Below, piece by piece: positions 51,939-53,387 of a DNA stretch of 64,000 nucleotides; the first letter of the stretch is position 1, and every line of letters begins with the position of its first letter. A program made the translations under genes and the position numbers. Source of the stretch: Rhizobiales bacterium SYSU XM002 (GTDB lineage: Bacteria > Pseudomonadota > Alphaproteobacteria > Rhizobiales > Beijerinckiaceae). A model generated the notes under the pieces. It was not told where the DNA came from. It made no database searches and was given only the letters and a program-made list of their open reading frames with translations. The stretch spans positions 372,001-436,000 of the forward strand of contig VWVY01000001.1 of the NCBI GenBank assembly GCA_009846685.1, written 5' to 3'.

Positions 51939-53387
51939 ATGCACGATATCCGCGCCCTGAGAGCCGATCCCGAGATCCTGAAAGCAGCAATGCTGCGTCG
52001 CCGCAAGCCGGAAGAAGCGGCAAAGGTTGCCTCCGTACTCGATCTCGATGCGCAATATCGTGCTGCGCTCACCGAGAAGGAAACGCTGCTCGCCCGCCGC
52101 AATGCCGCCTCGAAGGAAATCGGGCAGGCGATGGCGCAGAAGGACATGGCCCGCGCCGAAGCGCTGAAGGCGGAAGTCGCGGCCGGCAAGGAGCGGCTCG
52201 CCACACTCGAAACCGAAACCACGGAGATGGATGCGAAAATCCGCGACATTCTCTCCGGTATCCCGAACATTCCGCACGACGAGGTGCACGAAGGCGCGGA
52301 CGAGCACGCCAACGTCGAATATCGCCGCCACAGCGACAAGCCGAAGCTCGATACCAACGCGCCGAAGGAGCATTACGAACTCGGCGAAGCGCTTGGGATG
52401 ATGGACTTCGAGACGGCGGCGAAGCTCTCCGGCAGCCGTTTCGTCGTGCTCCAGCGCGGGCTGGCGCGGCTCGAACGCGCGCTCGGCCAGTTCATGCTCG
52501 ATCTTCACACGACCGAGCATGGCTATACCGAGGTCAACCCGCCCATTCTGGTCAAAGACGAGGCGATGTTCGGCACCGCGCAGCTTCCGAAGTTTGAAGA
52601 AGATCAGTTCTTGGCTGTTAGTGGCGGGCTATATGATCGTCTGATTGATATGTCAGAGCGTAGTTCTGCATGGTCTGGAAATACAGAGAAATTTCAAGAC
52701 ATTGGTGTTTCAGAAGTTATGGCTAGGAACTTCTTTCGAGAATTCTGGGCCGGTATTAAAGAAAAAGTTGGGAGGGACCGCCACTGGCTTGTCCCCACCG
52801 CGGAGGTGCCGCTCACCAACCTTGTGCGCGAGAAAATCCTCTCGGAAGAAGAACTCCCGCTACGCTTCACCGCGCTGACACCCTGCTTCCGCGCCGAGGC
52901 CGGCTCGGCGGGGCGCGATACGCGCGGCATGCTGCGCCAGCACCAGTTCAACAAGGTCGAACTCGTCTCGATCACGACGCCCGAAACCTCGCGCGACGAG
53001 CACGAGCGGATGGTGACCTGCGCCGAAACGGTGCTCAAGCGCCTCGGCCTGCATTTCCGGACCATGACGCTCTGCACCGGAGACATGGGCTTCGCGAGCC
53101 AGAAGACCTATGACATCGAGGTGTGGCTGCCGGGGCAGAACACCTATCGCGAAATTTCCTCCTGCTCGGTCTGCGGCGATTTCCAGGCGCGGCGCATGGA
53201 TGCCCGCTTCCGCTCGCCGGGAGATAAGGCGACGCGCTTCGTCCATACCCTCAACGGCTCGGGCGTCGCGGTCGGCCGCTGCCTGATCGCGGTGATGGAA
53301 AACTACCAGAACGCCGACGGCTCGATCACCGTGCCGGACGTGCTCCAGCCCTACATGGGCGGCCTCAAGAAGATCGAGAAAGCCTGA
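51939..53387 (+). CDS. serS: Seryl-tRNA synthetase with an in-frame insertion
   Basis: Class II synthetase, 482 residues, about 50 longer than the roughly 425-430 usual in alphaproteobacteria. The N-terminal coiled-coil tRNA-binding arm (about 1-110) and core are ordinary, with motif 2 in [17 protein letters not shown] and motif 3 at the C-terminus ([18 protein letters not shown]). Between the conserved [10 protein letters not shown] (ending at residue 219) and [13 protein letters not shown] (from residue 282) lie residues 225-281, which ordinary SerRS proteins lack apart from a few. The insertion is next to the serine-binding TAE, so enzyme function needs checking. The stop overlaps surE by one base. 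Confidence 0.93.
52611..52781 (+). other. AT-rich in-frame insertion within serS
   Basis: These 57 codons have no counterpart in typical SerRS. By hand count, 52621-52770 contains 62 of 150 G or C (41%), and 52681-52770 only about 37%, against 55-60% in adjacent lines of the same gene. Codons rare elsewhere here (TCA, TCT, AGT, GGA, ACA, AGG, CGA) are frequent. No intein end motifs (N-terminal Cys/Ser, C-terminal His-Asn) and no long inverted repeat were found. The AT-rich region extends slightly upstream to about 52590. Confidence 0.75.

What the first reader, a model, noticed from the sequence alone, without database searches (positions are those of the whole stretch)
52590..52781. A 57-codon AT-rich in-frame insertion near the active site of seryl-tRNA synthetase
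serS stays open but gains residues 225-281 between two strongly conserved segments. Known SerRS have only a few residues there. The inserted DNA is about 41% G+C by hand count, dropping to about 37% in its second half, and uses codons avoided elsewhere in the window. The protein is about 50 residues longer than usual. It looks like a recent acquisition: either an in-frame selfish insertion (as palindromic elements do in Rickettsia) or recombination with a low-G+C donor. It lies beside the serine-binding TAE, so it may change activity or substrate control.
Basis: partly seen in the sequence, partly recalled or inferred. Interest (0 to 1): 0.75.

Follow-up and report, generated by a model that had tools for sequence, protein, structure and literature searches.

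The report
Hypervariable insert in an essential enzyme
An essential protein-making enzyme, seryl-tRNA synthetase, carries beside its active site an extra segment that is swapped for unrelated segments again and again in soil alphaproteobacteria, which suggests that something repeatedly attacks or tests this enzyme there.

Summary
serS (51939-53387, +, 482 aa) has 60 residues (225-284) where short-form relatives have 8; the DNA holds the lowest-GC 150 bp of the window (0.41, z -5.2). Relatives change the picture: the loop is an insertion hotspot. All 16 readable same-genus SerRS (of 17 genomes) carry a long insert: nine low-GC and all different, the window's included, and seven of one 53-aa, GC-normal family. 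91 distinct long inserts fall into 62 sequence groups. In the low-GC class 0 of 2749 in-frame codons are stops. On a serS-body tree of 148 rows, long and short states change at least 26 times. Two same-genus genomes, 96-98% identical around the site, have 66 versus 8 residues. Close members of the 53-aa family show strong purifying selection. ThrRS and ProRS of the genus show no inserts. The insert is single-copy without inverted repeats, so not a palindromic element. Best reading: an exchangeable helical module at the active-site rim, turned over by short-tract recombination. Diversifying selection by an unknown SerRS-targeting antagonist is the likeliest driver but is inferred.

The parts
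51939..53387 (+). serS, seryl-tRNA synthetase, 482 aa
   Evidence: ORF; Pfam PF02403 and PF00587; NCBIfam TIGR00414, 499.8 bits against a cut-off of 301.65
52611..52790 (+). Hypervariable insert segment, residues 225-284 (60 residues where short-form SerRS have 8)
   Evidence: Comparison with relatives; AlphaFold2 predicts two helices, 229-255 and 259-280, block pLDDT 52-69
52593..52778 (+). Low-GC tract, from the F of LPKF to just before H-W-L; wider than the insert on the 5' side
   Evidence: Sequence; codon-by-codon GC3 by class; Fisher tests on F(-6), D(-3), F(-1)
52797..52805 (+). T-A-E, residues 287-289, serine-binding motif (function recalled)
   Evidence: T287 and E289 are invariant columns in alignment A2
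52665..52772 (+). Part of the insert that resembles the C-terminal half of a ~100-aa uncharacterised rhizobial protein (lead, not proven)
   Evidence: 15/31 identities with L359; 17.0 bits with a profile built without L359, best of 9100 shuffled inserts 10.6; reciprocal hit

Best explanation
SHOWN by comparison: the loop between the D-Q-F strand and the TAE motif of SerRS is an insertion hotspot in Hyphomicrobiales, most clearly in the window's family. It holds either a minimal turn of about 8 residues or a long in-frame module of 30-97 residues. Modules are mostly unrelated between species, often low in GC, and gained, lost or replaced many times on the serS tree; some have settled and are conserved. 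INFERRED (origin): modules arrive by short-tract recombination of serS fragments and, ultimately, by in-frame capture of foreign coding sequence; those that stay drift to host composition. INFERRED (function): the module forms a helical cap on the rim of the active site, and its turnover is driven by frequency-dependent selection to escape a macromolecule that recognises SerRS there (a phage inhibitor or an interbacterial toxin). Aminoacylation is presumably left intact, as the gene is taken to be essential.
For: All 16 readable same-genus SerRS have a long insert: 9 low-GC, each a singleton in the clustering, and 7 of one 53-aa family. 234 readable loci hold 97 long inserts, 91 distinct, in 62 groups: 8 with several members, 54 singletons. 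120 of the 375 family genomes with a match, fetched by rank of C-terminal similarity and not by insert: 58 minimal, 8 short, 54 long. 148-row body tree: 26 long/short changes, 74 group changes; the five members of the 94-aa group need 5 changes. The nearest body relative of the window's serS on that tree (L008) has the 53-aa insert. G024 (66 aa) and G334 (8 aa) have flanks 96.2 and 97.6% identical. Divergence next to the insert is raised in pairs with different inserts: 0.225 against 0.117 in the last 30 bp upstream, 58 and 53 pairs. In the low-GC class the conserved D(-3) is GAT in 38 of 42 against 25 of 63 in minimal forms and F(-1) is TTT in 26 of 40 against 7 of 63; K(-7), one codon beyond the tract, shows no difference. 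Stops: 0 of 2749 codons in frame, 29-74 per 1000 in the other five frames. The 53-aa family: four close pairs (L005 with L006-L009) have dN 0-0.017 against dS 0.53-0.86; two more distant same-genus pairs 0.104 against 1.48 and 0.110 against 0.49. In 7 of 33 homologous insert pairs printed, insert dS is saturated while flank dS is 0.48-1.23. Controls: ThrRS in 15 of 17 and ProRS in 13 of 17 same-genus genomes are full-length single matches without inserts (names).
Against: No antagonist, toxin gene or selection coefficient was found or measured; function is inference. Translation is inferred from the open frame. Human insertion II sits at the same place and is reported to play a negligible role in aminoacylation (PMC10817482, passages), so the site may simply tolerate insertions. 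Insert GC rises with host GC (Spearman 0.48 in 42 low-GC inserts, 0.46 in all 81), which argues against one outside pool. No donor was found. Genus g32 keeps one homologous GC-normal insert in 11 of 12 members read, and 26 of 35 g9 members read have the minimal turn. In several homologous pairs insert dS is no higher than flank dS (e.g. L005-L013, L208-L247, L024-L025). Pairs and codon counts are not independent of phylogeny.
Confidence: 0.45

Rival explanations
1. Permissive loop, no adaptive driver. The turn tolerates almost any helical insert; DNA fragments are captured now and then, drift, and are later stabilised by ordinary purifying selection on folding.
For: Same site as eukaryotic insertion II, said to be of negligible role in aminoacylation (position, where residue 262 of human 4l87 aligns with query residue 279). 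The 70 representative inserts share no motif beyond the boundary (only the final L is invariant). Stable or absent inserts in some genera.
Against: Very high turnover in the window's genus. Different long inserts in close relatives, not only gain and loss (e.g. L152 and L160, flanks 92.7 and 95.6% identical). Nothing similar in ThrRS and ProRS of the same genomes. Neutral insertion at the active-site rim of an essential enzyme should usually be harmful (inference).
Confidence: 0.3
2. Import of serS fragments from low-GC donors with no particular function: recombination hitch-hiking.
For: Low-GC codons extend into conserved F-x-x-D-Q-F. Raised divergence beside the insert.
Against: No match to the window's insert in a SerRS among plasmids, phages, 99 relatives or 397 order genomes. 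SerRS of the 8 of 10 viral contigs that could be read have short loops. Insert GC tracks host GC.
Confidence: 0.12
3. Tuning of the enzyme: the insert alters tRNA-Ser binding, stability, or serine discrimination to suit each species.
For: Position immediately before the TAE motif; purifying selection in the 53-aa family; three short helices predicted there with block pLDDT 64-94.
Against: Closely related genomes have unrelated inserts; tuning would predict shared, slowly changing sequences. Not tested by experiment.
Confidence: 0.1
4. Selfish in-frame repeat element of the Rickettsia palindromic kind.
For: In frame, low GC, inside an essential protein.
Against: Single copy in the genome, no inverted repeats, different sequences in the other species, one site.
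Confidence: 0.03

Closest known systems
Insertion II of higher-eukaryote cytosolic SerRS (human G254-N261)
   Same: Same loop, immediately before the serine-binding motif; tolerated by the enzyme.
   Different: Eight residues and a lineage trait; here 30-97 residues, unrelated between sister species, often low GC, repeatedly replaced, bacterial.
Rickettsia palindromic elements (RPE) inserted in proteins (recalled)
   Same: In-frame insertion of about 50 codons in a housekeeping gene.
   Different: Not repeated in the genome, not palindromic, one site, different sequences in sister species.
Exchangeable recognition cassettes such as restriction-modification target-recognition domains or polymorphic toxin and immunity pairs (recalled)
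   Same: Unrelated alleles at one site, foreign composition, in some pairs alleles that look older than their flanks.
   Different: The carrier is a single-copy translation enzyme, and no recognition partner is known.
Trojan-horse synthetase inhibitors: albomycin against SerRS, agrocin 84 against LeuRS of Agrobacterium (PMC7916415, passages)
   Same: Show that bacteria attack synthetases, SerRS included.
   Different: Small substrate mimics; they would not be expected to drive large, ever-changing surface modules.

Membership tests
Seryl-tRNA synthetase (bacterial type, TIGR00414) | Profile match over the curated cut-off, N-terminal arm and class II core | tested here: met
   499.8 bits against 301.65; PF02403 and PF00587; AlphaFold2 model with mean pLDDT 89.8
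Seryl-tRNA synthetase (bacterial type, TIGR00414) | Catalytic activity with the insert in place | not testable with these tools
   The other two PF00587 matches in its genome are ThrRS and ProRS, so no second SerRS was seen that could stand in
Rickettsia-type palindromic element | Several copies in the genome | tested here: not met
   One DNA match in the own genome at E up to 1
Rickettsia-type palindromic element | Palindromic DNA | tested here: not met
   No inverted repeats of 10 or more in 52540-52860
SerRS insertion II (eukaryotic) | Position just before the TAE-equivalent | tested here: met
   Human 4l87 residue 262 aligns with query 279; insertion II is 254-261
SerRS insertion II (eukaryotic) | Common descent and sequence | tested here: inconclusive
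   Bacterial relatives have the short turn or unrelated inserts; the human insert was not aligned directly
Exchangeable recognition cassette under balancing selection | Unrelated alleles at one site in close relatives | tested here: met
Exchangeable recognition cassette under balancing selection | A recognised partner or antagonist | not tested
   None known; no genome-wide co-occurrence search was run
Fic antitoxin VbhA (PF18495), considered for the 53-aa family | Pfam gathering score | tested here: not met
   Best 20.9 bits against 25.9, second half of the model only

The most novel reading that the evidence does not exclude
SerRS is a hidden battlefield in alphaproteobacteria. A widespread protein antagonist (phage- or competitor-borne) docks at the active-site rim of SerRS, and lineages escape by swapping in new helical modules from a large, exchanged pool, so that an essential core enzyme carries immune-like hypervariable alleles.
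Probability: 0.3. Interest if true: 0.92.

Novelty: new variant of a known kind. Interest (0 to 1): 0.72.

Why it matters
Essential synthetases are usually treated as slow, mostly vertically inherited markers. Here one of them carries a segment that behaves like a hypervariable recognition locus. If selection drives it, the insert alleles are a fingerprint of an undiscovered SerRS-targeting weapon and a direct handle to find it. If selection does not drive it, the site is a natural record of how unrelated coding sequence is captured and domesticated inside an essential enzyme. Either way SerRS alignments, phylogenies and inhibitor design in this class must allow for it.

Tried and rejected
Donor search for the window's insert: none in 99 relatives, none in phages by protein, no convincing DNA match in plasmids or phages (best E 0.1 and 7). 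The plasmid protein search gave 9 records at E 0.3-0.8: eight are one 70-codon stretch in Rhizobium, Agrobacterium and Sinorhizobium plasmids at 26-33% identity, taken as chance and not followed beyond fetching one (no annotation); the ninth is the Bradyrhizobium place of the lead described in the full report.

Domain search of 70 representative inserts: Pfam gave two sub-threshold hits, PHROGs none. The VbhA-like hit was followed and stays below the cut-off.

Inserts from other species: L019's insert hit six other genomes of its genus at E 3e-4 to 9e-3. In the two loci that I looked at (L361, L362) the match runs opposite to an ORF whose protein is conserved between them, so I took these as chance. 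L050's insert hit 2 of 385 class genomes at E 0.003-0.006, neither in a SerRS frame. These show how much weight the window insert's E 3.7e-5 hit can bear. Three long inserts found nothing in plasmids.

The first local gene control was spoiled by naive ORF calling and was replaced by ThrRS and ProRS. The first tree used unaligned registers and gave 27 long/short and 73 group changes; the codon-aligned tree gave 26 and 74. The two differ in the nearest relative of the window's serS (L010, L008); both have the 53-aa insert.

Literature: nine full-text searches listed no title or abstract that describes hypervariable bacterial SerRS inserts; I read listings, and passages of three papers. (a prophage repressor with a binding peak in serS) led nowhere. 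Subscription journals are not held.

Full report
WHAT IS THERE. The window holds an intact serS at 51939-53387 (+), 482 codons, recognised by Pfam and NCBIfam and lying between tatC and surE. Solved SerRS align to its two halves with a gap in the middle. Between D-Q-F and V-P-T-A-E the protein has 60 residues (225-284). Most SerRS from outside the order that were read have 8-11 there. The insert DNA has GC 0.444 against 0.636 in the flanks, and it contains the lowest-GC 150 bp of the 64-kb window (0.41, z -5.2).

NAMES. The whole-genome collection gives codes, not names. The family would then be Beijerinckiaceae in GTDB's sense (recalled). These names are inference.

IT IS NOT AN ISOLATED CASE. 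I searched 100 genomes, the own one included, and 397 family genomes (375 with a match), and read the site in fetched loci. The same loop carries inserts of many lengths and sequences. In the window's genus, 16 of 17 genomes gave a readable serS (G004 had no match). All 16 have a long insert: nine low-GC and seven of one 53-aa, GC-normal family. The nine, the window's among them, are all singletons in the clustering. The loci are biased towards inserted forms, because they were the best full-length matches. The fairer sample is the 120 family members fetched in rank order of similarity of the C-terminal 201 residues, those already held left out (120 of 375). There 58 have a turn of at most 11 residues, 8 have 12-29, and 54 have a long insert. 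Of the 54, 24 are clearly low-GC, 7 intermediate and 13 GC-normal. The other ten, all from genus g32, were missed by the first pattern; they carry one homologous GC-normal insert of about 35 residues.

DIVERSITY. 234 readable loci hold 97 inserts of 30 residues or more, 91 of them distinct (the g32 insert and the loci are not in this count). By blastp at E < 1e-3 they form 62 groups: eight with 2-18 members and 54 singletons. Long inserts also occur outside the order. Of 20 loci with long frames picked from the phylum search, five have an insert of 49-94 residues: four from other families of the class (L298, L301, L303, L309) and one from g9 (L315). One Xanthomonas and one Lysobacterales bin have them too (L126, L127). 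How common they are outside the order was not measured.

CODING AND CONSTRAINT. The 42 low-GC inserts hold 0 stops in 2749 in-frame codons, while the other five frames hold 29-74 per 1000. This is partly expected, because serS must work, but it shows that the segment is kept as part of the protein. In the 53-aa family, L005 against L006-L009 gives dN 0-0.017 and dS 0.53-0.86; two more distant same-genus pairs give 0.104 against 1.48 and 0.110 against 0.49. Over longer distances inserts change amino acids about 2-6 times faster than the flanks of the same pairs (printed pairs).

TURNOVER. On a codon-aligned tree of 148 serS bodies (insert and neighbouring codons left out; quick tree, SH-aLRT only), long and short states change at least 26 times and insert groups 74 times. 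The five members of the 94-aa group of g12 are scattered and need five changes. The nearest body relative of the window's serS, L008, carries the 53-aa insert, and flank DNA identity of the window's serS to seven genus members is 79-83%. The closest switch is G024 (66 aa) against G334 (8 aa), with flanks 96.2% and 97.6% identical. In 7 of the 33 homologous insert pairs printed, synonymous change in the insert is saturated while the flanks of the same pairs have dS 0.48-1.23; in others it is not higher than in the flanks. Inserts are short, so these estimates are rough. Either some inserts mutate faster, or they are older than the bodies that now carry them; the second fits exchange.

COMPOSITION. 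Fourfold sites in low-GC inserts are nearly flat (A 0.23, C 0.25, G 0.23, T 0.30), against A 0.03, C 0.50, G 0.41, T 0.06 in the flanks; GC-normal inserts nearly match their flanks. The low-GC signal reaches into conserved residues on the 5' side: D(-3) is GAT in 38 of 42 against 25 of 63 in minimal forms, F(-1) is TTT in 26 of 40 against 7 of 63, F(-6) is TTT in 25 of 42 against 11 of 63. K(-7) shows no difference, nor does the first codon after the insert. Within single genera the trend holds in g12 and g28 (p 0.009-0.048) and is not significant in g9 (p 0.06-0.17). So the foreign tract seems to begin at the F of LPKF and to end before W-L, which fits import of a serS fragment. In pairs with different inserts, divergence is also raised in the neighbouring bases (0.225 against 0.117 in the last 30 bp upstream; 58 and 53 non-independent pairs). 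Against a single outside pool, insert GC rises with host GC (Spearman 0.48 and 0.46; the first figure is inflated by how the class is defined).

CONTROLS. ThrRS (15 of 17 genomes) and ProRS (13 of 17) of the same genus are full-length single matches of nearly constant length (identities); the rest were not found or lay on broken contigs. Other enzymes were not compared. SerRS of viral contigs have short loops in the 8 of 10 that could be read. The window's insert is single-copy and without repeats. Among 11 loci with a lower-GC insert examined with their surroundings (the window and ten loci of up to 20 kb), the insert ranks first as lowest-GC 150 bp in 7.

STRUCTURE. AlphaFold2 builds a good SerRS (mean pLDDT 89.8) with the window's insert as two helices of low confidence (block pLDDT 52-69). 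The 53-aa insert of BEIJ4 becomes three short helices, block pLDDT 64-94. The nearest solved folds of the second model are ordinary SerRS. The place is that of insertion II of human SerRS, which the review describes as near the active site but of negligible role in aminoacylation (PMC10817482, passages read).

A LEAD ON ORIGIN. Residues 20-54 of the insert resemble the C-terminal half of a ~100-aa uncharacterised protein found on 89 plasmid records, mostly rhizobial. The first hit had E 3.7e-5 for one genome, in a search of 397, so about 0.015 overall. A second hit to the same family appeared in a plasmid search (Bradyrhizobium japonicum, E 0.6; the same place as H91). A profile built without the first hit scores the insert at 17.0 bits, against 10.6 for the best of 9100 shuffled inserts. 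The reciprocal search in the genus finds only the window's serS. Chance hits with another insert reached E 3e-4. I regard homology as somewhat more likely than not. If true, the insert holds a captured piece of another gene.

READING. Many alleles, foreign composition, replacement on near-identical flanks, constraint once settled, and absence from the two other synthetases compared: this is best explained by diversifying selection on an exposed helical module near the active site. The agent is unknown. Bacteria do attack synthetases (albomycin on SerRS, agrocin 84 on LeuRS; PMC7916415, passages), but a protein or phage antagonist fits large changing modules better than a substrate mimic. The permissive-loop rival remains serious at about 0.3.

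Noticed in passing
window 54184-54240: A 15-bp unit repeated 3.8 times head to tail near the start of the gene two downstream of serS (isoaspartyl methyltransferase-like but below that model's cut-off), giving L-A-D-R-T repeats in the protein.
   Followed up: no
L359 1315-1665; L369-L379: A ~100-aa uncharacterised protein family, common on rhizobial plasmids and also in Deinococcus and Comamonas; the one member scanned (L359) has no significant Pfam or NCBIfam match.
   Followed up: partly
L054, L214, L224, L236, L246, L250, L252, L254, L260, L261, L264: Genus g32 keeps one homologous ~35-residue GC-normal SerRS insert (WAFPG...), while one member of the same genus (L265) has an unrelated low-GC insert.
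   Followed up: partly
L091 (Rhizobium sp. 32-5/1): This Rhizobium SerRS carries a member of the 53-aa insert group, while the Rhizobium, Pararhizobium, Sinorhizobium and Ensifer records read (L080, L082, L084, L086) have the 8-residue turn.
   Followed up: no
window 19530, 36420, 42060, 56760: Other low-GC 150-bp spots of the window (GC 0.46-0.49), not examined.
   Followed up: no
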